Shown here in pieces: positions 24,037 through 64,000 of a stretch of 64,000 nt of DNA. Made by a program: the position numbers and the translations under genes. The DNA is from Schistosoma haematobium. Taxonomy: Eukaryota > Platyhelminthes > Trematoda > Strigeidida > Schistosomatidae. The stretch's first letter is position 1; each line of letters begins with the position of its first letter. A model generated the notes under the pieces. It was not told the origin of the DNA. It did no database searches and saw only the letters and a list, made by a program, of their open reading frames with translations. Where the stretch lies: positions 14,824,510 to 14,888,509 of the forward strand of contig NC_067200.1 of the NCBI RefSeq assembly GCF_000699445.3, in the 5' to 3' direction.

Positions 24037-24077
24037 AACTGAAAGCGACAGACTGACTGTAGCTTTGTGCAGTCGCT
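24037..24077 (+). repeat. Array left-edge fragment, out of order
   Basis: This 41-bp segment (CTGAAAGCGACAGACTGACT...) matches, with about four differences, the piece that lies just before the tRNA in every unit (24656-24696). Here it jumps within about 20 bp into the pyrimidine-rich block, skipping the rest of a unit. Confidence 0.65.
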
Positions 24078-24098
24078 CCAAATACCCGTTCACCTCAT

Positions 24099-24375
24099 AC
24101 TCTTCTTCATCCTCCCTCACCTACTCATCCTCCTCCTAAACCTACTCCTACTCCTCCCAATCCTAATCCTCTTCTTCATCATATTCCATATCATACACAT
24201 CAAATACACCCTCCTCCGCTTCTACTTCTTCTTCTTCTTCTTCTTCTTATTCTTCTACTTCTTCTTCTTCACCATCATTATCATCATCATCATCATCATC
24301 ATCATCATCTTCATCATATTCATCATATTCATCATATTCATCATATTCATCATATTCATCATACTCATCCCCACC
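24099..24375. repeat. Pyrimidine-rich block of unit 1 (TTC, ATC and 9-bp tracts)
   Basis: The + strand is nearly pure C/T/A. CTCCTC-type repeats are followed by (TTC)n with a TTATTCTTCTAC interruption, (ATC)n at about 24275-24310, then (ATCATATTC)n and CATCCCCACCAACC. It is the leftmost copy and enters the array partway through the block. Confidence 0.9.
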
Positions 24376-24752
24376 AACCACATCCACTCTACATGAACAC
24401 GGAATCGGCACACTCACATTGACCGATTGAGTGGTGTGTGAATATCAGGTAGTCGACTGATCGATTGGTGAATTGTCGATGTGAGATTAGAGTGATGGGA
24501 AGTGTGTGTCAATGAGGCAATGATGACGGTGATTGTGTGAAGTGAGTATGTGGTGTTGTATGGGTGTGATGACGTGAGAGGAGGCGGTGGTATGTGTGGT
24601 TGAGTTTGAGTTTGAGGTATGTGTGTGTGGACACAGAGTTGTGAATGTGGCAGACTGAATGCGACAGACTGACTGTAGGTGTGTGCAGTCGCTACGTATC
24701 ACTGTACGAGGAGGGTGAGTATTGTTTGGTCAAAGGCCGTTGCGCCCGATGG

Positions 24753-24763
24753 GGGCTCGAACC
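24753..24763 (-). promoter_or_regulatory. Pol III B box (representative, copy 1)
   Basis: GGTTCGAGCCC matches GGTTCGANNCC. It survives the T-arm deletions because those fall in the flanking homopolymers, so internal promoters are preserved in all copies. Confidence 0.9.
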
Positions 24764-24795
24764 CCCGACCCTCAGATTAAAAGTCTGATGCTCTA

Positions 24796-24807
24796 CCGAC
24801 TGAGCTA
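24796..24807 (-). promoter_or_regulatory. Pol III A box (representative, copy 1)
   Basis: TAGCTCAGTCGG matches the eukaryotic A-box consensus TRGCNNAGYNGG exactly. It is identical in all 23 copies. Confidence 0.9.
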
Positions 24808-25143
24808 ACCGGGCTCGACTGTTCGGCGCCGCTTGTCACACACATCAAAACCACCTCACACAACACACATGCACACTCACTCAAACAACACCATCTCAAT
24901 CATCATACACCCTACAACTAACACCAAGCCACACTCAACATCCTCTCACACAATCGCACACACACGCACACACAAACAAACAATCACTCAGTCAATCAAC
25001 CAGACATAAATCGAGACGCGGCTCTGTGCACACACTCACACACACTCACAATAACACACACAACACACACACACAACACACAACACACACACACACTTGC
25101 TTCTCCATTGGGAATCTCTACCGAACTACTCCGATCACCATAC

Positions 25144-25622
25144 TGTTATAACTTGTGACCGCCGGTTATTGTGCAGTGACTTATCGATCGGATCAATAAC
25201 GCGTAAAATACGTGCGAGCCGCCTAGATTCCTAATTGGTCCTGCTTTCCGCCTAGCCCAGCCAGTTTAGTCCAGAACACAAGTCTCAGCCTCTGCGATAT
25301 GCATCGTTATATTACAAATATTCTGAGTTTATATACCAATCAAACAGACCACAACGTACCAATATAATATGAAACAACATTTGTACAAGAATTAGCCAGA
25401 TTTGGCTGTGAATGAGGAGGTAGAAATTCATATACTGAGTATAACTCAAGAATGGTAAAACGTATAATAATAGTTTATGGGTCAAAATAAACCTTGTAAT
25501 AAGAGGAATATGAATATGCATACTTTAGTTAATTAATAATTATACAATAGAAATATGCGTTTAGTATTGGTCCATAAAAGGATCCCAAAGTTATCATTCA
25601 TTATGTTTATCGGGATATAACA
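25144..25622 (-). mobile_element. Solo LTR in array unit, copy 1
   Basis: On the minus strand it begins TGTTATATCCCGATAAAC and ends AAGTTATAACA, with 7-bp inverted ends TGTTATA/TATAACA. CATAC flanks it on both sides (25139-25143 and 25623-25627), a 5-bp target-site duplication. Homology to the solo LTR at 8803-9296 identifies it. No gag/pol, primer-binding site or polypurine tract is present. A TATA box TATATAAA lies at 25328-25335 in sense. One base shorter than the other 22 copies, which are 480 bp. State C at the C/T marker (CCGCCTAGCCC). Confidence 0.93.
25328..25335 (-). promoter_or_regulatory. LTR TATA box (representative, copy 1)
   Basis: TATATAAA on the minus strand, placed inside the LTR as in copies A and B. 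A Pol II transcript starting about 30 nt downstream would run through the CA-rich block and then the tRNA in sense, about 490 nt away. Activity is unproven. Confidence 0.55.
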
Positions 25623-25679
25623 CATACACAATGTTCCATTGCAGCCATAAATGTTGCACGCCACACTCTTTAACCGTAT

Positions 25680-26105
25680 CTGTCTTCCCACCACTACCCG
25701 TTTGTCTCCTCTACTTACACTTCCTCCGACTCCTACCACTCCTAATAGCAATCACACTCATACTGCTGCTCCCACTATTCCCACTCTTCCTGCTCTCATT
25801 CTCCAACAACTACAAATCATCCTACAACTCCTCCTTCTCCTCATCCTCTTCTTCCTCCTCCCTCACCTACTCATCCTCCTCCTAAACCTACTCCTACTCC
25901 TCCCAATCCTAATCCTCTTCTTCATCATATTCCATATCATACACATCAAATACACCCTCCTCCGCTTCTCCTTCTTCTTCTTCTTCTTCTTATTCTTCTA
26001 CTTCTTCTTCTTCACCATCATTATCATCATCATCATCATCTTCATCATATTCATCATATTCATCATATTCATCATACTCATCCCCATCAACCACATCCAC
26101 TCTAC
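25680..26105. repeat. Pyrimidine-rich microsatellite block (representative, unit 2)
   Basis: Present once per unit between the LTR and the TG-rich block. It holds an imperfect CTC/CTA-rich stretch, then (TTC)n, an ACCATCATT spacer, (ATC)n and 3-6 copies of ATCATATTC. Tract lengths differ between units, mostly by 3 or 9 bp, and account for nearly all unit-length variation. The + strand frames it opens encode runs of Leu, Phe, Ile and His; the minus frames encode Asp/Glu or Met/Lys runs. These are composition effects, not genes. Confidence 0.9.
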
Positions 26106-26450
26106 ATGAACACGGAATCGGCACACTCACATTGACCGATTGAGTGGTGTGTGAATATCAGGTAGTCGACTGATCGATTGGTGAATTGTCGATGTGAGAT
26201 TAGAGTGATGGGAAGTGTGTGTCAATGAGGCAATGATGACGGTGATTGTGTGAAGTGAGTATGTGGTGTTGTATGGGTGTGATGACGTGAGAGGAGGCGG
26301 TGGTATGTGTGGTTGAGTTTGAGTTTGAGGTGTGTGTGTGTGGACACAGAGTTGTGAATGTGGCAGACTGAATGCGACAGACTGACTGTAGGTGTGTGCA
26401 GTCGCTACGTATCACTGTACGAGGAGGGTGAGTATTGTTTGGTCAAAGGC
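26105..26450. repeat. TG-rich block left of the tRNA (representative, unit 2)
   Basis: About 345 bp, the same in every unit, G/T-rich on the + strand with a short (TG)n (GGTGTGTGTGTGTGG). It contains GCGAC...GTCGC, an imperfect hairpin next to the tRNA 3' flank. Because the tRNA is on the minus strand, this is its downstream flank. It holds no AAAA on the + strand, so no T4 Pol III terminator. Confidence 0.8.
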
Positions 26451-26455
26451 CGTTG

Positions 26456-26526
26456 CGCCCGATGGGGGCTCGAACCCCGACCCTCAGATTAAAAGTCTGA
26501 TGCTCTACCGACTGAGCTAACCGGGC
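26456..26526 (-). tRNA. tRNA-Lys(UUU), copy 2, 71 nt
   Basis: T arm is G4/C4: one base short on each side of the T stem, leaving a symmetrical 4-bp stem. Confidence 0.8.
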
Positions 26527-26529
26527 TCG

Positions 26530-26850
26530 ACTGTTCGGCGCCGCTTGTCACACACATCAAAACCACCTCACACAACACACATGCACACTCACTCAAACAA
26601 CACCATCTCAATCATCATACACCCTACAACTAACACCAAGCCACACTCAACATCCTCTCACACAATCGCACACACACGCACACACAAACAAACAATCACT
26701 CAGTCAATCAACCAGACATAAATCGAGACGCGGCTCTGTGCACACACTCACTCACACTCACAATAACACACACAACACACACACACACAACACACAACAC
26801 ACACACACACTTGCTTCTCCATTGGGAATCTCTACCGAACTACTCCGATC
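26530..26850. repeat. CA-rich block right of the tRNA (representative, unit 2)
   Basis: About 320 bp of A/C-rich + strand with two (CA)n tracts of variable length. It is the tRNA's upstream flank. It contains GTTCGGCGCCGC next to the tRNA 5' end. Length changes here are a second, smaller source of unit variation. Confidence 0.8.
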
Positions 26851-26857
26851 ACCATAC

Positions 26858-27337
26858 TGTTATAACTTGTGACCGCCGGTTATTGTGCAGTGACTTATCG
26901 ATCGGATCAATAACGCGTAAAATACGTGCGAGCCGCCTAGATTCCTAATTGGTCCTGCTTTCCGCCTAGCCCAGCCAGTTTAGTCCAGAACACAAGTCTC
27001 AGCCTCTGCGATATGCATCGTTATATTACAAACATTCTGAGTTTATATACCAATCAAACAGACCACAACGTACCAATATAATATGAAACAACATTTGTAC
27101 AAGAATTAGCCAGATTTGGCTGTGAATGAGGGAGGTAGAAATTCATATACTGAGTATAACTCAAGAATGGTAAAACGTATAATAATAGTTTATGGGTCAA
27201 AATAAACCTTGTAATAAGAGGAATATGAATATGCATACTTTAGTTAATTAATAATTATACAATAGAAATATGCGTTTAGTATTGGTCCATAAAAGGATCC
27301 CAAAGTTATCATTCATTATGTTTATCGGGATATAACA
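26858..27337 (-). mobile_element. Solo LTR in array unit, copy 2
   Basis: 480 bp, ends and CATAC flanks as copy 1. Marker state C. Confidence 0.92.
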
Positions 27338-28161
27338 CATACACAATGTTCCATTGCAGCCATAAATGTTGCACGCCACACTCTTTAACCGTATCTGTCT
27401 TCCCACCACTACCCGTTTGTCTCCTCTACTTACACTTCCTCCGACTCCTACCACTCCTAATAGCAATCACACTCATACTGCTGCTCCCACTATTCCCACT
27501 CTTCCTGCTCTCATTCTCCAACAACTACAAATCATCCTACAACTCCTCCTTCTCCTCATCCTCTTCTTCCTCCTCCCTCACCTACTCATCCTCCTCCTAA
27601 ACCTACTCCTACTCCTCCCAATCCTAATCCTCTTCTTCATCATATTCCATATCATACACATCAAATACACCCTCCTCCGCTTCTCCTTCTTCTTCTTCTT
27701 CTTCTTCACCATCATTATCACCATCATTATCATCATCATCATCATCTTCATCATATTCATCATATTCATCATATTCATCATACTCATCCCCATCAACCAC
27801 ATCCACTCTACATGAACACGGAATCGGCACACTCACATTGACCGATTGAGTGGTGTGTGAATATCAGGTAGTCGACTGATCGATTGGTGAATTGTCGATG
27901 TGAGATTAGAGTGATGGGAAGTGTGTGTCAATGAGGCAATGATGACGGTGATTGTGTGAAGTGAGTATGTGGTGTTGTATGGGTGTGATGACGTGAGAGG
28001 AGGCGGTGGTATGTGTGGTTGAGTTTGAGTTTGAGGTGTGTGTGTGTGGACACAGAGTTGTGAATGTGGCAGACTGAATGCGACAGACTGACTGTAGGTG
28101 TGTGCAGTCGCTACGTATCACTGTACGAGGAGGGTGAGTATTGTTTGGTCAAAGGCCGTTG

Positions 28162-28233
28162 CGCCCGATGGGGGCTCGAACCCCCGACCCTCAGATTAAA
28201 AGTCTGATGCTCTACCGACTGAGCTAACCGGGC
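28162..28233 (-). tRNA. tRNA-Lys(UUU), copy 3, 72 nt
   Basis: Same T-arm state as copy 1 (one base short on the 3' side). Confidence 0.85.
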
Positions 28234-28563
28234 TCGACTGTTCGGCGCCGCTTGTCACACACATCAAAACCACCTCACACAACACACATGCACACTCACT
28301 CAAACAACACCATCTCAATCATCATACACCCTACAACTAACACCAAGCCACACTCAACATCCTCTCACACAATCGCACACACACGCACACACAAACAAAC
28401 AATCACTCAGTCAATCAACCAGACATAAATCGAGACGCGGCTCTGTGCACACACTCACTCACACTCACAATAACACACACACACACACACACACAACACA
28501 CAACACACACACACACTTGCTTCTCCATTGGGAATCTCTACCGAACTACTCCGATCACCATAC

Positions 28564-29043
28564 TGTTATAACTTGTGACCGCCGGTTATTGTGCAGTGAC
28601 TTATCGATCGGATCAATAACGCGTAAAATACGTGCGAGCCGCCTAGATTCCTAATTGGTCCTGCTTTCCGCCTAGCCCAGCCAGTTTAGTCCAGAACACA
28701 AGTCTCAGCCTCTGCGATATGCATCGTTATATTACAAACATTCTGAGTTTATATACCAATCAAACAGACCACAACGTACCAATATAATATGAAACAACAT
28801 TTGTACAAGAATTAGCCAGATTTGGCTGTGAATGAGGGAGGTAGAAATTCATATACTGAGTATAACTCAAGAATGGTAAAACGTATAATAATAGTTTATG
28901 GGTCAAAATAAACCTTGTAATAAGAGGAATATGAATATGCATACTTTAGTTAATTAATAATTATACAATAGAAATATGCGTTTAGTATTGGTCCATAAAA
29001 GGATCCCAAAGTTATCATTCATTATGTTTATCGGGATATAACA
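28564..29043 (-). mobile_element. Solo LTR in array unit, copy 3
   Basis: 480 bp. Marker state C. Confidence 0.92.
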
Positions 29044-29422
29044 CATACACAATGTTCCATTGCAGCCATAAATGTTGCACGCCACACTCTTTAACCGTAT
29101 CTGTCTTCCCACCACTACCCGTTTGTCTCCTCTACTTACACTTCCTCCGACTCCTACCACTCCTAATAGCAATCACACTCATACTGCTGCTCCCACTATT
29201 CCCACTCTTCCTGCTCTCATTCTCCAACAACTACAAATCATCCTACAACTCCTCCTTCTCCTCATCCTCTTCTTCCTCCTCCCTCACCTACTCATCCTCC
29301 TCCTAAACCTACTCCTACTCCTCCCAATCCTAATCCTCTTCTTCATCATATTCCATATCATACACATCAAATACACCCTCCTCCGCTTCTCCTTCTTCTT
29401 CTTCTTCTTCTTCACCATCATT

Positions 29423-29458
<36 letters not shown>

Positions 29459-29872
29459 TTCATCATATTCATCATATTCATCATATTCATCATACTCATC
29501 CCCACCAACCACATCCACTCTACATGAACACGGAATCGGCACACTCACATTGACCGATTGAGTGGTGTGTGAATATCAGGTAGTCGACTGATCGATTGGT
29601 GAATTGTCGATGTGAGATTAGAGTGATGGGAAGTGTGTGTCAATGAGGCAATGATGACGGTGATTGTGTGAAGTGAGTATGTGGTGTTGTATGGGTGTGA
29701 TGACGTGAGAGGAGGCGGTGGTATGTGTGGTTGAGTTTGAGTTTGAGGTGTGTGTGTGTGGACACAGAGTTGTGAATGTGGCAGACTGAATGCGACAGAC
29801 TGACTGTAGGTGTGTGCAGTCGCTACGTATCACTGTACGAGGAGGGTGAGTATTGTTTGGTCAAAGCCGTTG

Positions 29873-29943
29873 CGCCTGATGGGGGCTCGAACCCCGACCC
29901 TCAGATTAAAAGTCTGATGCTCTACCGACTGAGCTAACCGGGC
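29873..29943 (-). tRNA. tRNA-Lys(UUU), copy 4, 71 nt, acceptor mismatch
   Basis: 4-bp T stem as in copy 2. It is the only copy with a substitution in the folded body: G69 reads A, giving a C4-A69 mismatch in the acceptor stem. Most likely a defective copy. Confidence 0.75.
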
Positions 29944-30277
29944 TCGACTGTTCGGCGCCGCTTGTCACACACATCAAAACCACCTCACACAACACACATG
30001 CACACTCACTCAAACAACACCATCTCAATCATCATACACCCTACAACTAACACCAAGCCACACTCAACATCCTCTCACACAATCGCACACACACGCACAC
30101 ACAAACAAACAATCACTCAGTCAATCAACCAGACATAAATCGAGACGCGGCTCTGTGCACACACTCACACACTCACACTCACAATAACACACACACACAC
30201 ACACACACAACACACAACACACACACACACTTGCTTCTCCATTGGGAATCTCTACCGAACTACTCCGATCACCATAC

Positions 30278-30757
30278 TGTTATAACTTGTGACCGCCGGT
30301 TATTGTGCAGTGACTTATCGATCGGATCAATAACGCGTAAAATACGTGCGAGCCGCCTAGATTCCTAATTGGTCCTGCTTTCCGCCTAGCCCAGCCAGTT
30401 TAGTCCAGAACACAAGTCTCAGCCTCTGCGATATGCATCGTTATATTACAAACATTCTGAGTTTATATACCAATCAAACAGACCACAACGTACCAATATA
30501 ATATGAAACAACATTTGTACAAGAATTAGCCAGATTTGGCTGTGAATGAGGGAGGTAGAAATTCATATACTGAGTATAACTCAAGAATGGTAAAACGTAT
30601 AATAATAGTTTATGGGTCAAAATAAACCTTGTAATAAGAGGAATATGAATATGCATACTTTAGTTAATTAATAATTATACAATAGAAATATGCGTTTAGT
30701 ATTGGTCCATAAAAGGATCCCAAAGTTATCATTCATTATGTTTATCGGGATATAACA
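30278..30757 (-). mobile_element. Solo LTR in array unit, copy 4
   Basis: 480 bp. Marker state C. Confidence 0.92.
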
Positions 30758-31587
30758 CATACACAATGTTCCATTGCAGCCATAAATGTTGCACGCCACA
30801 CTCTTTAACCGTATCTGTCTTCCCACCACTACCCGTTTGTCTCCTCTACTTACACTTCCTCCGACTCCTACCACTCCTAATAGCAATCACACTCATACTG
30901 CTGCTCCCACTATTCCCACTCTTCCTGCTCTCATTCTCCAACAACTACAAATCATCCTACAACTCCTCCTTCTCCTCATCCTCTTCTTCCTCCTCCCTCA
31001 CCTACTCATCCTCCTCCTAAACCTACTCCTACTCCTCCCAATCCTAATCCTCTTCTTCATCATATTCCATATCATACACATCAAATACACACTCCTCCGC
31101 TTCTCCTTCTTCTTCTTCTTCTTCTTCACCATCATTATCATCATCATCATCATCATCATCATCTTCATCATATTCATCATATTCATCATATTCATCATAT
31201 TCATCATACTCATCCCCATCAACCACATCCACTCTACATGAACACGGAATCGGCACACTCACATTGACCGATTGAGTGGTGTGTGAATATCAGGTAGTCG
31301 ACTGATCGATTGGTGAATTGTCGATGTGAGATTAGAGTGATGGGAAGTGTGTGTCAATGAGGCAATGATGACGGTGATTGTGTGAAGTGAGTATGTGGTG
31401 TTGTATGGGTGTGATGACGTGAGAGGAGGCGGTGGTATGTGTGGTTGAGTTTGAGTTTGAGGTGTGTGTGTGTGGACACAGAGTTGTGAATGTGGCAGAC
31501 TGAATGCGACAGACTGACTGTAGGTGTGTGCAGTCGCTACGTATCACTGTACGAGGAGGGTGAGTATTGTTTGGTCAGAAGCCGTTG

Positions 31588-31659
31588 CGCCCGATGGGGG
31601 CTCGAACCCCCGACCCTCAGATTAAAAGTCTGATGCTCTACCGACTGAGCTAACCGGGC
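31588..31659 (-). tRNA. tRNA-Lys(UUU), copy 5, 72 nt
   Basis: T arm as copy 1. The immediate 3' flank is CGGCTTCTGACC rather than the CGGCCTTTGACC of copies 1-3. Confidence 0.85.
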
Positions 31660-31988
31660 TCGACTGTTCGGCGCCGCTTGTCACACACATCAAAACCACC
31701 TCACACAACACACATGCACACTCACTCAAACAACACCATCTCAATCATCATACACCCTACAACTAACACCAAGCCACACTCAACATCCTCTCACACAATC
31801 GCACACACACGCACACACAAACAAACAATCACTCAGTCAATCAACCAGACATAAATCGAGACGCGGCTCTGTGCACACACTCACACACACTCACAATAAC
31901 ACACACACAACACACACACAACACACAACACACACACACACTTGCTTCTCCATTGGGAATCTCTACCGAACTACTCCGATCACCATAC

Positions 31989-32468
31989 TGTTATAACTTG
32001 TGACCGCCGGTTATTGTGCAGTGACTTATCGATCGGATCAATAACGCGTAAAATACGTGCGAGCCGCCTAGATTCCTAATTGGTCCTGCTTTCCGCCTAG
32101 CCCAGCCAGTTTAGTCCAGAACACAAGTCTCAGCCTCTGCGATATGCATCGTTATATTACAAACATTCTGAGTTTATATACCAATCAAACAGACCACAAC
32201 GTACCAATATAATATGAAACAACATTTGTACAAGAATTAGCCAGATTTGGCTGTGAATGAGGGAGGTAGAAATTCATATACTGAGTATAACTCAAGAATG
32301 GTAAAACGTATAATAATAGTTTATGGGTCAAAATAAACCTTGTAATAAGAGGAATATGAATATGCATACTTTAGTTAATTAATAATTATACAATAGAAAT
32401 ATGCGTTTAGTATTGGTCCATAAAAGGATCCCAAAGTTATCATTCATTATGTTTATCGGGATATAACA
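31989..32468 (-). mobile_element. Solo LTR in array unit, copy 5
   Basis: 480 bp. Marker state C. Confidence 0.92.
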
Positions 32469-33279
32469 CATACACAATGTTCCATTGCAGCCATAAATGT
32501 TGCACGCCACACTCTTTAACCGTATCTGTCTTCCCACCACTACCCGTTTGTCTCCTCTACTTACACTTCCTCCGACTCCTACCACTCCTAATAGCAATCA
32601 CACTCATACTGCTGCTCCCACTATTCCCACTCTTCCTGCTCTCATTCTCCAACAACTACAAATCATCCTACAACTCCTCCTTCTCCTCATCCTCTTCTTC
32701 CTCCTCCCTCACCTACTCATCCTCCTCCTAAACCTACTCCTACTCCTCCCAATCCTAATCCTCTTCTTCATCATATTCCATATCATACACATCAAATACA
32801 CACTCCTCCGCTTCTCCTTCTTCTTCTTCTTCTTCTTCACCATCATTATCATCATCATCATCATCATCATCTTCATCATATTCATCATATTCATCATATT
32901 CATCATACTCATCCCCATCAACCACATCCACTCTACATGAACACGGAATCGGCACACTCACATTGACCGATTGAGTGGTGTGTGAATATCAGGTAGTCGA
33001 CTGATCGATTGGTGAATTGTCGATGTGAGATTAGAGTGATGGGAAGTGTGTGTCAATGAGGCAATGATGACGGTGATTGTGTGAAGTGAGTATGTGGTGT
33101 TGTATGGGTGTGATGACGTGAGAGGAGGCGGTGGTATGTGTGGTTGAGTTTGAGGTGTGTGTGTGTGGACACAGAGTTGTGAATGTGGCAGACTGAATGC
33201 GACAGACTGACTGTAGGTGTGTGCAGTCGCTACGTATCACTGTACGAGGAGGGTGAGTATTGTTTGGTCAAAGCCGTTG

Positions 33280-33351
33280 CGCCCGATGGGGGCTCGAACC
33301 CCCGACCCTCAGATTAAAAGTCTGATGCTCTACCGACTGAGCTAACCGGGC
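33280..33351 (-). tRNA. tRNA-Lys(UUU), copy 6, 72 nt
   Basis: T arm as copy 1. The 3' flank is CGGCTTTGACC, shared with copies 4 and 7. Confidence 0.85.
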
Positions 33352-33680
33352 TCGACTGTTCGGCGCCGCTTGTCACACACATCAAAACCACCTCACACAA
33401 CACACATGCACACTCACTCAAACAACACCATCTCAATCATCATACACCCTACAACTAACACCAAGCCACACTCAACATCCTCTCACACAATCGCACACAC
33501 ACGCACACACAAACAAACAATCACTCAGTCAATCAACCAGACATAAATCGAGACGCGGCTCTGTGCACACACTCACACACACTCACAATAACACACACAC
33601 AACACACACACAACACACAACACACACACACACTTGCTTCTCCATTGGGAATCTCTACCGAACTACTCCGATCACCATAC

Positions 33681-34160
33681 TGTTATAACTTGTGACCGCC
33701 GGTTATTGTGCAGTGACTTATCGATCGGATCAATAACGCGTAAAATACGTGCGAGCCGCCTAGATTCCTAATTGGTCCTGCTTTCCGCCTAGCCCAGCCA
33801 GTTTAGTCCAGAACACAAGTCTCAGCCTCTGCGATATGCATCGTTATATTACAAACATTCTGAGTTTATATACCAATCAAACAGACCACAACGTACCAAT
33901 ATAATATGAAACAACATTTGTACAAGAATTAGCCAGATTTGGCTGTGAATGAGGGAGGTAGAAATTCATATACTGAGTATAACTCAAGAATGGTAAAACG
34001 TATAATAATAGTTTATGGGTCAAAATAAACCTTGTAATAAGAGGAATATGAATATGCATACTTTAGTTAATTAATAATTATACAATAGAAATATGCGTTT
34101 AGTATTGGTCCATAAAAGGATCCCAAAGTTATCATTCATTATGTTTATCGGGATATAACA
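33681..34160 (-). mobile_element. Solo LTR in array unit, copy 6
   Basis: 480 bp. Last copy with marker state C. Confidence 0.92.
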
Positions 34161-34989
34161 CATACACAATGTTCCATTGCAGCCATAAATGTTGCACGCC
34201 ACACTCTTTAACCGTATCTGTCTTCCCACCACTACCCGTTTGTCTCCTCTACTTACACTTCCTCCGACTCCTACCACTCCTAATAGCAATCACACTCATA
34301 CTGCTGCTCCCACTATTCCCACTCTTCCTGCTCTCATTCTCCAACAACTACAAATCATCCTACAACTCCTCCTTCTCCTCATCCTCTTCTTCCTCCTCCC
34401 TCACCTACTCATCCTCCTCCTAAACCTACTCCTACTCCTCCCAATCCTAATCCTCTTCTTCATCATATTCCATATCATACACATCAAATACACCCTCCTC
34501 CGCTTCTCCTTCTTCTTCTTCTTCTTCTTCACCATCATTATCATCATCATCATCATCATCATCATCTTCATCATATTCATCATATTCATCATATTCATCA
34601 TATTCATCATACTCATCCCCACCAACCACATCCACTCTACATGAACACGGAATCGGCACACTCACATTGACCGATTGAGTGGTGTGTGAATATCAGGTAG
34701 TCGACTGATCGATTGGTGAATTGTCGATGTGAGATTAGAGTGATGGGAAGTGTGTGTCAATGAGGCAATGATGACGGTGATTGTGTGAAGTGAGTATGTG
34801 GTGTTGTATGGGTGTGATGACGTGAGAGGAGGCGGTGGTATGTGTGGTTGAGTTTGAGTTTGAGGTGTGTGTGTGTGGACACAGAGTTGTGAATGTGGCA
34901 GACTGAATGCGACAGACTGACTGTAGGTGTGTGCAGTCGCTACGTATCACTGTACGAGGAGGGTGAGTATTGTTTGGTCAAAGCCGTTG

Positions 34990-53322: not shown

Positions 53323-53354
<32 letters not shown>

Positions 53355-53395
53355 ATTCATCATATTCATCATATTCATCATACTCATCCCCACCA
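53195..53395. repeat. Pyrimidine block of unit 18, with internal deletion
   Basis: At about 53203 the usual CATCCTACAACTCC... stretch jumps to CATCCTCCAACTACTCCTAC, removing roughly 70 bp that all other units keep. The downstream CCTCCTCCGCTTCTCC is also altered to CTCCTCCTCCTCTTC. This explains the short 1651-bp unit. Confidence 0.85.
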
Positions 53396-53761: not shown

Positions 53762-53834
53762 CGCCCGATGGGGGGCTCGAACCCCCGACCCTCAGATTAA
53801 AAGTCTGATGCTCTACCGACTGAGCTAACCGGGC
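53762..53834 (-). tRNA. tRNA-Lys(UUU), copy 18, 73 nt, canonical
   Basis: The only copy with both homopolymers full length. GGGGG (49-53) pairs with CCCCC (61-65) around the TTCGAGC loop, giving the standard 73-nt cloverleaf with a 5-bp T stem and a 5-nt variable loop. Its unit also carries the internal deletion at 53.2 kb. If the array has one certainly functional tRNA gene, it is this one. Confidence 0.95.
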
Positions 53835-54173
53835 TCGACTGTTCGGCGCCGCTTGTCACACACATCAAAACCACCTCACACAACACACATGCACACTCAC
53901 TCAAACAACACCATCTCAATCATCATACACCCTACAACTAACACCAAGCCACACTCAACATCCTCTCACACAATCGCACACACACGCACACACACACACA
54001 AACAAACAATCACTCAGTCAATCAACCAGACATAAATCGAGACGCGGCTCTGTGCACACACTCACACACTCACACTCACAATAACACACACACACACACA
54101 CACACACAACACACACACACACACACTTGCTTCTCCATTGGGAATCTCTACCGAACTACTCCGATCACCATAC

Positions 54174-54653
54174 TGTTATAACTTGTGACCGCCGGTTATT
54201 GTGCAGTGACTTATCGATCGGATCAATAACGCGTAAAATACGTGCGAGCCGCCTAGATTCCTAATTGGTCCTGCTTTCCGTCTAGCCCAGCCAGTTTAGT
54301 CCAGAACACAAGTCTCAGCCTCTGCGATATGCATCGTTATATTACAAACATTCTGAGTTTATATACCAATCAAACAGACCACAACGTACCAATATAATAT
54401 GAAACAACATTTGTACAAGAATTAGCCAGATTTGGCTGTGAATGAGGGAGGTAGAAATTCATATACTGAGTATAACTCAAGAATGGTAAAACGTATAATA
54501 ATAGTTTATGGGTCAAAATAAACCTTGTAATAAGAGGAATATGAATATGCATACTTTAGTTAATTAATAATTATACAATAGAAATATGCGTTTAGTATTG
54601 GTCCATAAAAGGATCCCAAAGTTATCATTCATTATGTTTATCGGGATATAACA
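54174..54653 (-). mobile_element. Solo LTR in array unit, copy 18
   Basis: 480 bp. Marker state T. Confidence 0.92.
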
Positions 54654-55499
54654 CATACACAATGTTCCATTGCAGCCATAAATGTTGCACGCCACACTCT
54701 TTAACCGTATCTGTCTTCCCACCACTACCCGTTTGTCTCCTCTACTTACACTTCCTCCGACTCCTACCACTCCTAATAGCAATCACACTCATACTGCTGC
54801 TCCCACTATTCCCACTCTTCCTGCTCTCATTCTCCAACAACTACAAATCATCCTACAACTCCTCCTTCTCCTCATCCTCTTCTTCCTCCTCCCTCACCTA
54901 CTCATCCTCCTCCTAAACCTACTCCTACTCCTCCCAATCCTAATCCTCTTCTTCATCATATTCCATATCATACACATCAAATACACCCTCCTCCGCTTCT
55001 CCTTCTTCTTCTTCTTCTTCTTCTTCTTCTTCTTCTTCTTTCACCATCATCATCATCATCATCATCTTCATCATATTCATCATATTCATCATATTCATCA
55101 TATTCATCATATTCATCATACTCATCCCCACCAACCACATCCACTCTACATGAACACGGAATCGGCACACTCACATTGACCGATTGAGTGGTGTGTGAAT
55201 ATCAGGTAGTCGACTGATCGATTGGTGAATTGTCGATGTGAGATTAGAGTGATGGGAAGTGTGTGTCAATGAGGCAATGATGACGGTGATTGTGTGAAGT
55301 GAGTATGTGGTGTTGTATGGGTGTGATGACGTGAGAGGAGGCGGTGGTATGTGTGGTTGAGTTTGAGTTTGAGGTGTGTGTGTGTGGACACAGAGTTGTG
55401 AATGTGGCAGACTGAATGCGACAGACTGACTGTAGGTGTGTGCAGTCGCTACGTATCACTGTACGAGGAGGGTGAGTATTGTTTGGTCAGAAGCCGTTG

Positions 55500-55570
55500 C
55501 GCCCGATGGGGGCTCGAACCCCGACCCTCAGATTAAAAGTCTGATGCTCTACCGACTGAGCTAACCGGGC
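55500..55570 (-). tRNA. tRNA-Lys(UUU), copy 19, 71 nt
   Basis: 4-bp T stem. Confidence 0.8.
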
Positions 55571-55908
55571 TCGACTGTTCGGCGCCGCTTGTCACACACA
55601 TCAAAACCACCTCACACAACACACATGCACACTCACTCAAACAACACCATCTCAATCATCATACACCCTACAACTAACACCAAGCCACACTCAACATCCT
55701 CACACTCACACACACGCACACACACGCACACACAAACAAACAATCACTCAGTCAATCAACCAGACATAAATCGAGACGCGGCTCTGTGCACACACTCACA
55801 CACTCACACTCACAATAACACACACACACACACACACACAACACACAACACACACACACACTTGCTTCTCCATTGGGAATCTCTACCGAACTACTCCGAT
55901 CACCATAC

Positions 55909-56388
55909 TGTTATAACTTGTGACCGCCGGTTATTGTGCAGTGACTTATCGATCGGATCAATAACGCGTAAAATACGTGCGAGCCGCCTAGATTCCTAAT
56001 TGGTCCTGCTTTCCGTCTAGCCCAGCCAGTTTAGTCCAGAACACAAGTCTCAGCCTCTGCGATATGCATCGTTATATTACAAACATTCTGAGTTTATATA
56101 CCAATCAAACAGACCACAACGTACCAATATAATATGAAACAACATTTGTACAAGAATTAGCCAGATTTGGCTGTGAATGAGGGAGGTAGAAATTCATATA
56201 CTGAGTATAACTCAAGAATGGTAAAACGTATAATAATAGTTTATGGGTCAAAATAAACCTTGTAATAAGAGGAATATGAATATGCATACTTTAGTTAATT
56301 AATAATTATACAATAGAAATATGCGTTTAGTATTGGTCCATAAAAGGATCCCAAAGTTATCATTCATTATGTTTATCGGGATATAACA
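55909..56388 (-). mobile_element. Solo LTR in array unit, copy 19
   Basis: 480 bp. Marker state T. Confidence 0.92.
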
Positions 56389-57230
56389 CATACACAATGT
56401 TCCATTGCAGCCATAAATGTTGCACGCCACACTCTTTAACCGTATCTGTCTTCCCACCACTACCCGTTTGTCTCCTCTACTTACACTTCCTCCGACTCCT
56501 ACCACTCCTAATAGCAATCACACTCATACTGCTGCTCCCACTATTCCCACTCTTCCTGCTCTCATTCTCCAACAACTACAAATCATCCTACAACTCCTCC
56601 TTCTCCTCATCCTCTTCTTCCTCCTCCCTCACCTACTCATCCTCCTCCTAAACCTACTCCTACTCCTCCCAATCCTAATCCTCTTCTTCATCATATTCCA
56701 TATCATACACATCAAATACACCCTCCTCCGCTTCTCCTTCTTCTTCTTCTTCTTCTTCTTCTTCACCATCATTATCATCATCATCATCATCATCATCTTC
56801 ATCATATTCATCATATTCATCATATTCATCATATTCATCATATTCATCATACTCATCCCCACCAACCACATCCACTCTACATGAACACGGAATCGGCACA
56901 CTCACATTGACCGATTGAGTGGTGTGTGAATATCAGGTAGTCGACTGATCGATTGGTGAATTGTCGATGTGAGATTAGAGTGATGGGAAGTGTGTGTCAA
57001 TGAGGCAATGATGACGGTGATTGTGTGAAGTGAGTATGTGGTGTTGTATGGGTGTGATGACGTGAGAGGAGGCGGTGGTATGTGTGGTTGAGTTTGAGTT
57101 TGAGGTGTGTGTGTGTGGACACAGAGTTGTGAATGTGGCAGACTGAATGCGACAGACTGACTGTAGGTGTGTGCAGTCGCTACGTATCACTGTACGAGGA
57201 GGGTGAGTATTGTTTGGTCAGAAGCCGTTG

Positions 57231-57301
57231 CGCCCGATGGGGGCTCGAACCCCGACCCTCAGATTAAAAGTCTGATGCTCTACCGACTGAGCTAACCGGG
57301 C
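57231..57301 (-). tRNA. tRNA-Lys(UUU), copy 20, 71 nt
   Basis: 4-bp T stem. Confidence 0.8.
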
Positions 57302-57642
57302 TCGACTGTTCGGCGCCGCTTGTCACACACATCAAAACCACCTCACACAACACACATGCACACTCACTCAAACAACACCATCTCAATCATCATACACCCT
57401 ACAACTAACACCAAGCCACACTCAACATCCTCTCACACAATCGCACACACACGCACACACACACACAAACAAACAATCACTCAGTCAATCAACCAGACAT
57501 AAATCGAGACGCGGCTCTGTGCACACACTCACACACTCACACTCACAATAACACACACAACACACACACACACAACACACAACACACACACACACTTGCT
57601 TCTCCATTGGGAATCTCTACCGAACTACTCCGATCACCATAC

Positions 57643-58122
57643 TGTTATAACTTGTGACCGCCGGTTATTGTGCAGTGACTTATCGATCGGATCAATAACG
57701 CGTAAAATACGTGCGAGCCGCCTAGATTCCTAATTGGTCCTGCTTTCCGTCTAGCCCAGCCAGTTTAGTCCAGAACACAAGTCTCAGCCTCTGCGATATG
57801 CATCGTTATATTACAAACATTCTGAGTTTATATACCAATCAAACAGACCACAACGTACCAATATAATATGAAACAACATTTGTACAAGAATTAGCCAGAT
57901 TTGGCTGTGAATGAGGGAGGTAGAAATTCATATACTGAGTATAACTCAAGAATGGTAAAACGTATAATAATAGTTTATGGGTCAAAATAAACCTTGTAAT
58001 AAGAGGAATATGAATATGCATACTTTAGTTAATTAATAATTATACAATAGAAATATGCGTTTAGTATTGGTCCATAAAAGGATCCCAAAGTTATCATTCA
58101 TTATGTTTATCGGGATATAACA
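57643..58122 (-). mobile_element. Solo LTR in array unit, copy 20
   Basis: 480 bp. Marker state T. Confidence 0.92.
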
Positions 58123-58960
58123 CATACACAATGTTCCATTGCAGCCATAAATGTTGCACGCCACACTCTTTAACCGTATCTGTCTTCCCACCACTACCCG
58201 TTTGTCTCCTCTACTTACACTTCCTCCGACTCCTACCACTCCTAATAGCAATCACACTCATACTGCTGCTCCCACTATTCCCACTCTTCCTGCTCTCATT
58301 CTCCAACAACTACAAATCATCCTACAACTCCTCCTTCTCCTCATCCTCTTCTTCCTCCTCCCTCACCTACTCATCCTCCTCCTAAACCTACTCCTACTCC
58401 TCCCAATCCTAATCCTCTTCTTCATCATATTCCATATCATACACATCAAATACACCCTCCTCCGCTTCTCCTTCTTCTTCTTCTTCTTCTTCTTCTTCTT
58501 CTTCTTCACCATCATATCATCATCATCATCATCATCTTCATCATATTCATCATATTCATCATATTCATCATATTCATCATACTCATCCCCACCAACCACA
58601 TCCACTCTACATGAACACGGAATCGGCACACTCACATTGACCGATTGAGTGGTGTGTGAATATCAGGTAGTCGACTGATCGATTGGTGAATTGTCGATGT
58701 GAGATTAGAGTGATGGGAAGTGTGTGTCAATGAGGCAATGATGACGGTGATTGTGTGAAGTGAGTATGTGGTGTTGTATGGGTGTGATGACGTGAGAGGA
58801 GGCGGTGGTATGTGTGGTTGAGTTTGAGTTTGAGGTGTGTGTGTGTGGACACAGAGTTGTGAATGTGGCAGACTGAATGCGACAGACTGACTGTAGGTGT
58901 GTGCAGTCGCTACGTATCACTGTACGAGGAGGGTGAGTATTGTTTGGTCAGAAGCCGTTG

Positions 58961-59031
58961 CGCCCGATGGGGGCTCGAACCCCGACCCTCAGATTAAAAG
59001 TCTGATGCTCTACCGACTGAGCTAACCGGGC
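58961..59031 (-). tRNA. tRNA-Lys(UUU), copy 21, 71 nt
   Basis: 4-bp T stem. Confidence 0.8.
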
Positions 59032-59372
59032 TCGACTGTTCGGCGCCGCTTGTCACACACATCAAAACCACCTCACACAACACACATGCACACTCACTCA
59101 AACAACACCATCTCAATCATCATACACCCTACAACTAACACCAAGCCACACTCAACATCCTCTCACACAATCACACACACGCACACACGCACACACAAAC
59201 AAACAATCACTCAGTCAATCAACCAGACATAAATCGAGACGCGGCTCTGTGCACACACTCACACACTCACACTCACAATAACACACACAACACACACACA
59301 CACAACACACAACACACACACACACTTGCTTCTCCATTGGGAATCTCTACCGAACTACTCCGATCACCATAC

Positions 59373-59852
59373 TGTTATAACTTGTGACCGCCGGTTATTG
59401 TGCAGTGACTTATCGATCGGATCAATAACGCGTAAAATACGTGCGAGCCGCCTAGATTCCTAATTGGTCCTGCTTTCCGTCTAGCCCAGCCAGTTTAGTC
59501 CAGAACACAAGTCTCAGCCTCTGCGATATGCATCGTTATATTACAAACATTCTGAGTTTATATACCAATCAAACAGACCACAACGTACCAATATAATATG
59601 AAACAACATTTGTACAAGAATTAGCCAGATTTGGCTGTGAATGAGGGAGGTAGAAATTCATATACTGAGTATAACTCAAGAATGGTAAAACGTATAATAA
59701 TAGTTTATGGGTCAAAATAAACCTTGTAATAAGAGGAATATGAATATGCATACTTTAGTTAATTAATAATTATACAATAGAAATATGCGTTTAGTATTGG
59801 TCCATAAAAGGATCCCAAAGTTATCATTCATTATGTTTATCGGGATATAACA
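59373..59852 (-). mobile_element. Solo LTR in array unit, copy 21
   Basis: 480 bp. Marker state T. Confidence 0.92.
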
Positions 59853-60699
59853 CATACACAATGTTCCATTGCAGCCATAAATGTTGCACGCCACACTCTT
59901 TAACCGTATCTGTCTTCCCACCACTACCCGTTTGTCTCCTCTACTTACACTTCCTCCGACTCCTACCACTCCTAATAGCAATCACACTCATACTGCTGCT
60001 CCCACTATTCCCACTCTTCCTGCTCTCATTCTCCAACAACTACAAATCATCCTACAACTCCTCCTTCTCCTCATCCTCTTCTTCCTCCTCCCTCACCTAC
60101 TCATCCTCCTCCTAAACCTACTCCTACTCCTCCCAATCCTAATCCTCTTCTTCATCATATTCCATATCATACACATCAAATACACCCTCCTCCGCTTCTC
60201 CTTCTTCTTCTTCTTCTTCTTCTTCTTCTTCTTCTTCACTTCTTCACCATCATTATCATCATCATCATCATCATCTTCATCATATTCATCATATTCATCA
60301 TATTCATCATATTCATCATACTCATCCCCACCAACCACATCCACTCTACATGAACACGGAATCGGCACACTCACATTGACCGATTGAGTGGTGTGTGAAT
60401 ATCAGGTAGTCGACTGATCGATTGGTGAATTGTCGATGTGAGATTAGAGTGATGGGAAGTGTGTGTCAATGAGGCAATGATGACGGTGATTGTGTGAAGT
60501 GAGTATGTGGTGTTGTATGGGTGTGATGACGTGAGAGGAGGCGGTGGTATGTGTGGTTGAGTTTGAGTTTGAGGTGTGTGTGTGTGGACACAGAGTTGTG
60601 AATGTGGCAGACTGAATGCGACAGACTGACTGTAGGTGTGTGCAGTCGCTACGTATCACTGTACGAGGAGGGTGAGTATTGTTTGGTCAGAAGCCGTTG

Positions 60700-60770
60700 C
60701 GCCCGATGGGGGCTCGAACCCCGACCCTCAGATTAAAAGTCTGATGCTCTACCGACTGAGCTAACCGGGC
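60700..60770 (-). tRNA. tRNA-Lys(UUU), copy 22, 71 nt
   Basis: 4-bp T stem. Confidence 0.8.
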
Positions 60771-61106
60771 TCGACTGTTCGGCGCCGCTTGTCACACACA
60801 TCAAAACCACCTCACACAACACACATGCACACTCACTCAAACAACACCATCTCAATCATCATACACCCTACAACTAACACCAAGCCACACTCAACATCCT
60901 CTCACACAATCGCACACACACGCACACACAAACAAACAATCACTCAGTCAATCAACCAGACATAAATCGAGACGCGGCTCTGTGCACACACTCACACACT
61001 CACACTCACAATAACACACACACACACACACACACACAACACACAACACACACACACACTTGCTTCTCCATTGGGAATCTCTACCGAACTACTCCGATCA
61101 CCATAC

Positions 61107-61586
61107 TGTTATAACTTGTGACCGCCGGTTATTGTGCAGTGACTTATCGATCGGATCAATAACGCGTAAAATACGTGCGAGCCGCCTAGATTCCTAATTG
61201 GTCCTGCTTTCCGTCTAGCCCAGCCAGTTTAGTCCAGAACACAAGTCTCAGCCTCTGCGATATGCATCGTTATATTACAAACATTCTGAGTTTATATACC
61301 AATCAAACAGACCACAACGTACCAATATAATATGAAACAACATTTGTACAAGAATTAGCCAGATTTGGCTGTGAATGAGGGAGGTAGAAATTCATATACT
61401 GAGTATAACTCAAGAATGGTAAAACGTATAATAATAGTTTATGGGTCAAAATAAACCTTGTAATAAGAGGAATATGAATATGCATACTTTAGTTAATTAA
61501 TAATTATACAATAGAAATATGCGTTTAGTATTGGTCCATAAAAGGATCCCAAAGTTATCATTCATTATGTTTATCGGGATATAACA
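61107..61586 (-). mobile_element. Solo LTR in array unit, copy 22
   Basis: 480 bp. Marker state T. Confidence 0.92.
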
Positions 61587-62428
61587 CATACACAATGTTC
61601 CATTGCAGCCATAAATGTTGCACGCCACACTCTTTAACCGTATCTGTCTTCCCACCACTACCCGTTTGTCTCCTCTACTTACACTTCCTCCGACTCCTAC
61701 CACTCCTAATAGCAATCACACTCATACTGCTGCTCCCACTATTCCCACTCTTCCTGCTCTCATTCTCCAACAACTACAAATCATCCTACAACTCCTCCTT
61801 CTCCTCATCCTCTTCTTCCTCCTCCCTCACCTACTCATCCTCCTCCTAAACCTACTCCTACTCCTCCCAATCCTAATCCTCTTCTTCATCATATTCCATA
61901 TCATACACATCAAATACACCCTCCTCCGCTTCTCCTTCTTCTCCTTCTTCTTCTTCTTCTTCTTCTACTTCTTCACCATCATTATCATCATCATCATCAT
62001 CATCTTCATCATATTCATCATATTCATCATATTCATCATATTCATCATACTCATCCCCACCAACCACATCCACTCTACATGAACACGGAATCGGCACACT
62101 CACATTGACCGATTGAGTGGTGTGTGAATATCAGGTAGTCGACTGATCGATTGGTGAATTGTCGATGTGAGATTAGAGTGATGGGAAGTGTGTGTCAATG
62201 AGGCAATGATGACGGTGATTGTGTGAAGTGAGTATGTGGTGTTGTATGGGTGTGATGACGTGAGAGGAGGCGGTGGTATGTGTGGTTGAGTTTGAGTTTG
62301 AGGTGTGTGTGTGTGGACACAGAGTTGTGAATGTGGCAGACTGAATGCGACAGACTGACTGTAGGTGTGTGCAGTCGCTACGTATCACTGTACGAGGAGG
62401 GTGAGTATTGTTTGGTCAGAAGCCGTTG

Positions 62429-62500
62429 CGCCCGATGGGGGCTCGAACCCCCGACCCTCAGATTAAAAGTCTGATGCTCTACCGACTGAGCTAACCGGGC
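62429..62500 (-). tRNA. tRNA-Lys(UUU), copy 23, 72 nt
   Basis: T arm as copy 1. Last tRNA in the window; unit 24 is cut before its tRNA. Confidence 0.85.
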
Positions 62501-62844
62501 TCGACTGTTCGGCGCCGCTTGTCACACACATCAAAACCACCTCACACAACACACATGCACACTCACTCAAACAACACCATCTCAATCATCATACACCCTA
62601 CAACTAACACCAAGCCACACTCAACATCCTCTCACACAATGCACACACACGCACACACACGCACACACAAACAAACAATCACTCAGTCAATCAACCAGAC
62701 ATAAATCGAGACGCGGCTCTGTGCACACACTCACACACTCACACTCACAATAACACACACAACACACACACACACAACACACAACACACACACACACTTG
62801 CTTCTCCATTGGGAATCTCTACCGAACTACTCCGATCACCATAC

Positions 62845-63324
62845 TGTTATAACTTGTGACCGCCGGTTATTGTGCAGTGACTTATCGATCGGATCAATAA
62901 CGCGTAAAATACGTGCGAGCCGCCTAGATTCCTAATTGGTCCTGCTTTCCGTCTAGCCCAGCCAGTTTAGTCCAGAACACAAGTCTCAGCCTCTGCGATA
63001 TGCATCGTTATATTACAAACATTCTGAGTTTATATACCAATCAAACAGACCACAACGTACCAATATAATATGAAACAACATTTGTACAAGAATTAGCCAG
63101 ATTTGGCTGTGAATGAGGGAGGTAGAAATTCATATACTGAGTATAACTCAAGAATGGTAAAACGTATAATAATAGTTTATGGGTCAAAATAAACCTTGTA
63201 ATAAGAGGAATATGAATATGCATACTTTAGTTAATTAATAATTATACAATAGAAATATACGTTTAGTATTGGTCCATAAAAGGATCCCAAAGTTATCATT
63301 CATTATGTTTATCGGGATATAACA
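62845..63324 (-). mobile_element. Solo LTR in array unit, copy 23
   Basis: 480 bp. Marker state T, plus a private G-to-A change (AAATATACG instead of AAATATGCG) near 63258. Confidence 0.92.
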
Positions 63325-64000
63325 CATACACAATGTTCCATTGCAGCCATAAATGTTGCACGCCACACTCTTTAACCGTATCTGTCTTCCCACCACTACC
63401 CGTTTGTCTCCTCTACTTACACTTCCTCCGACTCCTACCACTCCTAATAGCAATCACACTCATACTGCTGCTCCCACTATTCCCACTCTTCCTGCTCTCA
63501 TTCTCCAACAACTACAAATCATCCTACAACTCCTCCTTCTCCTCATCCTCTTCTTCCTCCTCCCTCACCTACTCATCCTCCTCCTAAACCTACTCCTACT
63601 CCTCCCAATCCTAATCCTCTTCTTCATCATATTCCATATCATACACATCAAATACACCCTCCTCCGCTTCTCCTTCTTCTTCTTCTTCTTCTTCTTCTTC
63701 TTCTTCTTCTTCATCATCATCATCATCATCATCATCATCTTCATCATATTCATCATATTCATCATATTCATCATATTCATCATACTCATCCCCACCAACC
63801 ACATCCACTCTACATGAACACGGAATCGGCACACTCACATTGACCGATTGAGTGGTGTGTGAATATCAGGTAGTCGACTGATCGATTGGTGAATTGTCGA
63901 TGTGAGATTAGAGTGATGGGAAGTGTGTGTCAATGAGGCAATGATGACGGTGATTGTGTGAAGTGAGTATGTGGTGTTGTATGGGTGTGATGACGTGAGA

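What the first reader, a model, noticed from the sequence alone, without database searches (positions are those of the whole stretch)
24037..64000. Macrosatellite of at least 23 tRNA-Lys(UUU) genes, one per 1.7-kb unit
The sequence shows 23 head-to-tail units over at least 40 kb, each with one tRNA-Lys on the minus strand, a solo LTR, and blocks of microsatellites. The right boundary is outside the window, so the true size is unknown. Tandem tRNA units separated by short tandem repeats are well known from Entamoeba; I am not aware of a described equivalent in a flatworm, though I cannot search. Possible roles (dosage of one tRNA, a heterochromatin or boundary structure, sex-chromosome repeat) are inference.
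Basis: partly seen in the sequence, partly recalled or inferred. Interest (0 to 1): 0.9.

Follow-up and report, generated by a model that had tools for sequence, protein, structure and literature searches.

The report
Tandem array of lysine tRNA genes
A blood-fluke chromosome carries a 70-kilobase block of about 40 near-identical head-to-tail repeats with 41 copies of one lysine tRNA gene, and the characteristic core of that gene was found nowhere else in the assembled genome, so this block may be how the worm makes most or all of this essential tRNA.

Summary
The window lies in the Schistosoma haematobium Shae.V3 assembly. All 23 tRNA-Lys(UUU) genes are there, one per 1.65-1.74 kb unit, with a 480-bp solo LTR flanked by CATAC. 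The sequence to the right closes the array: 41 tRNA genes over 69.7 kb, no N, ending inside a 41st, truncated LTR. No two of 40 full units are identical, and 10 of 11 testable substitution sites cluster in neighbouring units, as unequal exchange predicts. An exact pattern search of the 400-Mb assembly found the tRNA anticodon-arm core 41 times, all in this array. I read it as an rDNA-like multicopy source of tRNA-Lys(UUU), possibly the only one. Two points go against easy function. As assembled, 38 of 41 copies have a shortened T-arm run; this is scattered at random along the array, unlike true variants, so nanopore consensus error is the likelier cause. And no copy has a TTTT terminator within 700 nt. 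tRNA tandem arrays are known in Entamoeba and at human 1q23.3; a single-isoacceptor array that may be the sole locus in an animal is a new variant. Searches for variant Lys-UUU genes, Lys-CUU genes and a full tRNA census did not complete; copy number was not tested on reads.

The parts
24027..64000 (.). in-window part of the tRNA-Lys(UUU) tandem array (whole array: window coordinates 24027-93733, G000:C6:14848536-14918242, 69,707 bp, 41 tRNA genes)
24027..24077 (+). left edge: 51-bp copy (88%) of the tRNA-side motif, fused to the CTC block of the first, partial unit
24742..24814 (-). tRNA-Lys(UUU) 1
26455..26526 (-). tRNA-Lys(UUU) 2
28161..28233 (-). tRNA-Lys(UUU) 3
29872..29943 (-). tRNA-Lys(UUU) 4 (also one acceptor-stem substitution)
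31587..31659 (-). tRNA-Lys(UUU) 5
33279..33351 (-). tRNA-Lys(UUU) 6
34989..35060 (-). tRNA-Lys(UUU) 7
36695..36766 (-). tRNA-Lys(UUU) 8
38393..38465 (-). tRNA-Lys(UUU) 9
40092..40163 (-). tRNA-Lys(UUU) 10
41804..41875 (-). tRNA-Lys(UUU) 11
43517..43588 (-). tRNA-Lys(UUU) 12
45236..45307 (-). tRNA-Lys(UUU) 13
46961..47032 (-). tRNA-Lys(UUU) 14
48685..48756 (-). tRNA-Lys(UUU) 15
50412..50484 (-). tRNA-Lys(UUU) 16
52110..52182 (-). tRNA-Lys(UUU) 17
53761..53834 (-). tRNA-Lys(UUU) 18, the only in-window copy with a canonical T-arm
55499..55570 (-). tRNA-Lys(UUU) 19
57230..57301 (-). tRNA-Lys(UUU) 20
58960..59031 (-). tRNA-Lys(UUU) 21
60699..60770 (-). tRNA-Lys(UUU) 22
62428..62500 (-). tRNA-Lys(UUU) 23
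25144..25622 (.). solo LTR-like element of unit 1 (479 bp, TG...CA, CATAC on both sides); the other in-window copies start at 26858, 28564, 30278, 31989, 33681, 35389, 37087, 38794, 40504, 42212, 43924, 45640, 47367, 49092, 50816, 52523, 54174, 55909, 57643, 59373, 61107, 62845, 480 bp each
26858..28563 (.). representative whole unit (1706 bp): LTR, unique stretch, microsatellites, tRNA-side motif, tRNA, CA-rich block
27542..27632 (+). CTC-rich block of the representative unit (period 21/3)
27706..27788 (+). TCA / TCATCATAT microsatellite of the representative unit, in the most variable part of the unit
28062..28112 (+). tRNA-side motif, copied at the left edge of the array
28448..28517 (+). 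CA-rich microsatellite of the representative unit, upstream of the tRNA in its own direction

Best explanation
A real tandem array with 41 tRNA genes on a 22-Mb scaffold of Schistosoma haematobium acts, like an rDNA array, as the main and possibly the only gene source of tRNA-Lys(UUU). Shown: structure, extent in the assembly, near-identity, local clustering of variants, intact A and B boxes, and absence elsewhere in the assembly of the exact 19-base anticodon-arm core. Inferred: one founding unit, already carrying the LTR insertion, was amplified; unequal exchange, perhaps helped by the microsatellites, homogenises neighbours; Pol III transcribes at least some copies from internal promoters; most T-arm length differences are nanopore consensus errors. 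How transcription ends without a TTTT run is not explained.
For: Whole-assembly exact pattern search of the anticodon stem, loop and variable-loop core: 41 matches, all in this array, 0 elsewhere, 0 for the reversed control. 41 tRNA-Lys in window plus 200 kb to the right; array closed on both sides with no N. 40 full units: none identical to another, 19 of 1371 gap-free columns variable. Of 11 two-allele sites with minor count 3 or more, 10 are clustered in neighbouring units (P 0.021 or less; one site P 0.146), while the T-arm G4/G5 state is random along the array (20 runs, 20.04 expected): inherited variants and T-arm lengths behave differently. Assembly made from nanopore reads with Canu and Medaka, then short-read polishing (passages of PMC8846543). 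A box and B box sequences present in 41 of 41. CATAC on both sides of 40 of 40 complete LTRs: one insertion before amplification. PMC2770079 passages say Lys-CTT is absent or rare in S. mansoni and Schmidtea, so UUU genes may carry lysine decoding in relatives.
Against: As assembled, 38 of 41 copies lack a canonical T-arm (26 with G4/C5, 12 with G5/C5; 3 canonical). No TTTT nearer than 703-897 nt downstream in 41 of 41, and TTT within 60 nt in only 7 of 41; random positions in the AT-richer left flank meet TTTT at a median of 78 nt, 95th percentile 449. A Lys-UUU gene with a changed core, or Lys-CUU genes, could exist elsewhere: the three searches for them (3-mismatch UUU pattern, CUU pattern, RF00005) did not complete. 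45 gaps in the assembly could hide copies. Variable columns are no rarer in the tRNA (1 in 72 bases) than in the LTR (6 in 480), so no selection on the tRNA alone is visible. No expression data.
Confidence: 0.6

Rival explanations
1. Passive macrosatellite: the tRNA gene is a passenger in a satellite that grows by microsatellite- or LTR-driven unequal exchange; lysine tRNA comes mainly from sequence-divergent genes elsewhere.
For: No TTTT terminator nearby; microsatellites fill much of the unit; variable columns are similarly rare in LTR (6 in 480) and tRNA (1 in 72), so no sign of selection limited to the tRNA; the LTR family is dispersed (38 of 41 listed matches at 88-90% identity, three short ones at 78-81%).
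Against: Exact tRNA core absent elsewhere in the assembly; promoter boxes present in 41 of 41; one tRNA substitution outside the T-arm runs in 41 copies.
Confidence: 0.2
2. Chromatin or boundary element: Pol III factors on the repeated tRNA genes form an insulator or heterochromatin barrier, as proposed for human 1q23.3.
For: The human tRNA VNTR binds CTCF, and its authors cite barrier activity for part of the mouse cluster (passages of PMC4041453); GC is 43.5% in the array against 34.2% in the flanks held.
Against: No binding or Hi-C data here; CTCF in schistosomes not examined; would not explain absence of the tRNA core elsewhere.
Confidence: 0.08
3. Assembly artefact: a short array inflated by mis-joined reads.
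For: Long near-identical repeats are hard to assemble; no read evidence available here.
Against: No two of 40 units identical; 10 of 11 testable substitution sites lie in ordered blocks; distance grows with separation, mean 9.0 at lag 1 to 13.3 at lag 14 with a dip at lag 6, in the 22 complete in-window units; no N.
Confidence: 0.07
4. Degenerate tRNA pseudogene satellite: the shortened T-arms are real and most copies are dead.
For: 38 of 41 copies have a shortened T-arm run as assembled; no oligo-T terminator.
Against: T-arm state is random along the array while 10 of 11 substitution sites are clustered; the T-arm G run is the longest homopolymer of the reference unit, and its six A4 runs do not vary in 22 of 22 in-window units; nanopore assembly; other stems unmutated bar one copy.
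Confidence: 0.05

Closest known systems
Entamoeba tRNA gene arrays (PMC2652664: abstract and section 'Function' seen)
   Same: tandem arrays of tRNA genes with short tandem repeats between them; units mostly uniform in sequence with small variation in the repeats; function unclear
   Different: E. histolytica arranges almost all tRNA genes in 25 unit types of up to 5 tRNAs making over 10% of the genome; here one isoacceptor, one gene per unit, one array seen, with an LTR in each unit, in an animal
Human tRNA VNTR at 1q23.3 and mouse counterpart (PMC4041453: abstract and passages seen)
   Same: animal macrosatellite with tRNA genes, head to tail, 9-43 units in human alleles, LTRs beside the array, simple repeats in units
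   Different: 7.3-kb GC-rich unit with several different tRNAs that also have copies elsewhere; CTCF sites; here a 1.7-kb unit with tRNA-Lys(UUU) only, an LTR inside each unit, tRNA core not found elsewhere
tDNA clusters across eukaryotes (PMC2888827: 12 of 17 matching places seen)
   Same: clustered tRNA genes of one amino acid occur in several lineages
   Different: a 2010 survey, so on early assemblies; the passages I saw describe no schistosome array
Eimeria tenella chromosome 6 tRNA cluster with TGTTGC repeats between genes (PMC9131526 passage)
   Same: simple repeats between clustered tRNA genes
   Different: one sentence seen; unit structure not described there
Xenopus 3.18-kb tDNA repeat (recalled; one search found no paper on it, and the passages do not treat it)
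   Same: tandem tRNA gene unit in an animal, high copy (recalled)
   Different: several tRNAs per unit (recalled)
Schistosome SL RNA 595-nt tandem repeat and rDNA (PMC2770079 passages)
   Same: essential non-coding RNA genes in tandem, near-identical copies, in the same genus
   Different: not tRNA; no tRNA array is reported in the passages I saw

Membership tests
tRNA tandem array / macrosatellite (general kind) | head-to-tail units of kilobase size each with tRNA gene(s) | tested here: met
   41 genes, 1652-1746 bp spacing
tRNA tandem array / macrosatellite (general kind) | units near-identical through concerted evolution | tested here: met
   (mechanism inferred from clustering)
tRNA tandem array / macrosatellite (general kind) | copy-number variation between individuals | not testable with these tools
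   no reads, one assembly
Entamoeba-type tRNA arrays | short tandem repeats between tRNA genes | tested here: met
Entamoeba-type tRNA arrays | almost all tRNA genes of the genome arrayed | not tested
   genome-wide RF00005 search asked 9 times, never answered
Human 1q23.3-type tRNA VNTR | several different tRNA genes per unit | tested here: not met
   only tRNA-Lys(ttt) in the array, 41 of 41
Human 1q23.3-type tRNA VNTR | CTCF site in each unit | not tested
   no motif or binding test made
functional tRNA-Lys(UUU) gene | A and B boxes | tested here: met
   41 of 41 (box consensus recalled)
functional tRNA-Lys(UUU) gene | canonical 5-bp T-stem and 7-nt T-loop | tested here: inconclusive
   3 of 41 as assembled; the rest probably consensus error
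functional tRNA-Lys(UUU) gene | Pol III terminator, four or more T shortly downstream (recalled criterion) | tested here: not met
   0 of 41 within 100 nt; nearest 703-897 nt
solo LTR | TG...CA ends and short target duplication | tested here: met
   40 of 40 complete copies with CATAC both sides; of 8 dispersed relatives read by eye, 3 show an exact 5-bp duplication (L002, L004, L008), L003 matches in 4 of 5 bases, L006 does not, and in L001, L005, L007 the aligned end falls short
solo LTR | a full-length relative with two LTRs and an interior | not tested
   only about 1.5-kb flanks fetched; interior not looked for

The most novel reading that the evidence does not exclude
All tRNA-Lys(UUU) of an animal comes from one rDNA-like 70-kb tandem array; if Lys-CUU genes are absent or rare as reported for S. 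mansoni, nearly all lysine decoding rests on one repeat locus whose genes end without the usual oligo-T terminator.
Probability: 0.4. Interest if true: 0.8.

Novelty: new variant of a known kind. Interest (0 to 1): 0.62.

Why it matters
Homogeneous tandem repeats of tRNA genes are called uncommon outside Entamoeba (PMC4041453 passage). If one essential tRNA of an animal depends on a single tandem array, its dose can change by unequal exchange, its copies evolve in concert, and parasite populations could vary in lysine-tRNA dose; the array would also be a variable marker like the Entamoeba repeats. The missing TTTT terminator would make schistosome Pol III termination directly testable. The assembly lesson is practical too: nanopore homopolymer errors in repeats that short reads cannot polish can make live tRNA genes look dead.

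Tried and rejected
Tested and dropped: (1) primer-site link between the LTR family and tRNA-Lys: no TGGCGCCC on either strand in the loci held (L001-L008 with about 1.5-kb flanks, L009-L028) or in the 264-kb stretch, so no sign. (2) Higher-order repeat: slight dip at lag 6 (9.73 against 11.25 at lag 5 and 10.82 at lag 7); not taken as a higher-order unit. (3) Hairpin in the tRNA-side motif as a terminator: z-score 0.20, no support. The same call folds all three T-arm variants into four-armed forms, so folding does not tell live from dead copies. (4) Coding: the long frames in the array are low-complexity repeats by eye. (5) Sex-chromosome repeat: wrong-sized scaffold. (6) Papers: 10 searches, of which several list only the top of long rankings (25 of 28, 20 of 43, 25 of 232, 15 of 27, 10 of 11, 20 of 1,774, 6 of 2,922 papers); passages of PMC2770079, PMC2888827, PMC9131526, PMC10900676, PMC4041453, PMC8846543 and PMC2695483, and abstract plus one section of PMC2652664. 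No schistosome or flatworm nuclear tRNA array was seen; subscription papers and preprints are mostly not in that library. (7) Other schistosome genomes are not held here, so conservation was not tested.
Full report
What is there. ARAGORN finds 23 tRNA-Lys(UUU) genes in the window, all on the minus strand, and no other tRNA; Rfam agrees for 23 of 23 and adds five hammerhead ribozymes in the left flank. Each sits in a unit of 1652-1739 bp. In the plus direction a unit holds a 480-bp TG...CA element flanked by CATAC, a unique stretch, CTC-, CTT- and TCA-rich microsatellites, a second unique stretch with a 51-bp motif, the tRNA gene on the minus strand, and a CA-rich block.

Where it is. The window is C6:14824510-14888509 of an assembly of 400,267,458 bases in 163 contigs; C6 is 22,148,653 bases long. 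Passages of PMC8846543 give 163 scaffolds, 400.27 Mb (400,271,889 in its table, 4,431 more than held here) and an N90 of exactly 22,148,653 for Schistosoma haematobium Shae.V3, so I identify the assembly as that one. It was made from nanopore reads with Canu and Medaka, scaffolded, gap-closed, and polished with short reads.

Full extent. The 200 kb to the right close the array: 41 tRNA-Lys(UUU) in all, with no N in the 264-kb stretch. 40 LTRs are complete with CATAC on both sides; the 41st stops after about 87 bases, where unrelated sequence begins. The left edge is a 51-bp copy of the tRNA-side motif joined to the CTC block. Span: 24027-93733 in continued window coordinates, 69,707 bp, GC 43.5% against 34.2% in the flanks held.

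How alike the units are. In 40 full units, 1371 alignment columns have no gap within 5 columns and 19 of them vary; no two units are identical. Microsatellite lengths carry most of the variation (first 22 units). Substitutions come in blocks: the first six units share one, the last seven share another, the last four share two. Of 11 two-allele sites with a minor count of at least 3, 10 are more clustered than shuffled orders (P 0.021 or less) and one is not (P 0.146). That is the pattern of local unequal exchange or conversion. It also speaks against an assembly loop, though no reads were available to count units. Variable columns are no rarer in the tRNA (1 in 72 bases) than in the LTR (6 in 480), so the data show homogenisation, not selection on the tRNA alone.

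The T-arm problem. By run length, 26 of 41 tRNAs have G4/C5, 12 have G5/C5 and 3 have G5/C6, the only form with a canonical 5-bp stem and 7-nt loop. Taken at face value most copies would be faulty. But the G4/G5 state is random along the array (20 runs, 20.04 expected), unlike most true variants. The G run is the longest homopolymer of the reference unit, while its six A4 runs do not vary in 22 of 22 in-window units. In a nanopore assembly, where short reads are hard to place in repeats, undercalled homopolymers are the simpler account. This is inference; accurate reads would settle it.

Is it the gene source? The exact 19-base core of the anticodon arm and variable loop occurs 41 times in the whole assembly, all in this array, none elsewhere, with 0 for the reversed control. 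A 641-bp unit-core search listed 40 array units and the left-edge motif; 40 of 55 candidates were scored, and one array unit is itself missing from the list, so the cap cut true copies and that search cannot exclude outliers. So the array is the only assembled place with this exact tRNA core. Whether a Lys-UUU gene with a changed core, or Lys-CUU genes, exist elsewhere is open: the searches did not complete. PMC2770079 states that Lys-CTT is absent or rare in S. mansoni and Schmidtea, which would make UUU genes the main lysine tRNAs there.

Evidence against easy function. A and B boxes are present in 41 of 41, but the nearest TTTT downstream is 703-897 nt away in 41 of 41, and only 7 of 41 have even TTT within 60 nt. 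Random positions in the left flank, which is AT-richer, meet TTTT at a median of 78 nt, 95th percentile 449. One tRNA-Asn-like hit in the right flank has TTTTT about 45 nt downstream, a control of one that was not itself checked for function. Either these genes stop at a weak or non-canonical site, or they read through toward the LTR, or they are not the main source.

Mechanism, most likely. One unit that already carried the LTR was amplified and is kept alike by unequal exchange; the array works like rDNA as a multicopy tRNA-Lys(UUU) source. The structure is shown; transcription and supply are inferred. Confidence 0.6.

Known relatives. Entamoeba arrays share short tandem repeats and mostly uniform units but cover nearly all tRNAs (PMC2652664 abstract and Function section). 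The human 1q23.3 VNTR is an animal tRNA macrosatellite with several tRNAs per 7.3-kb unit and 9-43 units per allele; its authors call homogeneous tandem tRNA repeats uncommon outside Entamoeba (PMC4041453 abstract and passages). Membership in either is not claimed. It is a new variant of the known kind, tRNA tandem arrays. In the ten paper searches listed under Tried and rejected I saw no flatworm nuclear example; several gave capped lists, and the library lacks most subscription papers and preprints.

Noticed in passing
window 450-902, 8802-9265, 23620-23813: Other copies of the same LTR family in the left flank at about 74-78% identity to the array LTR; one truncated copy lies about 200 bp outside the array edge on the opposite strand.
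   Followed up: partly
window 3138-3183, 5058-5103, 12324-12369, 14128-14173, 22497-22542: Five type I hammerhead ribozymes in the left flank, as expected for schistosome Sm-alpha-like SINEs (ribozyme SINEs mentioned in PMC2770079).
   Followed up: no
window 21422-21991 and 10371-10820, minus strand: Two stop-to-stop frames with Pfam DUF6451; that this domain goes with retroelements is recalled.
   Followed up: no
window 26858-28563, minus strand: GC skew in tRNA direction goes from about +0.6 upstream of the tRNA to -0.81 after it, then to +1.0 further downstream (one unit).
   Followed up: no
window 52523-54173 (unit 17): Most divergent of the 22 complete in-window units (distance 18.8 or more to every other), with a shortened CTC block; its tRNA at 53761 is the only canonical one in the window.
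   Followed up: partly
L024 1175-1250 (window coordinates continued to 215175-215250), minus strand: A tRNA-Asn-like hit (gtt) about 121 kb right of the array; not checked for function.
   Followed up: no
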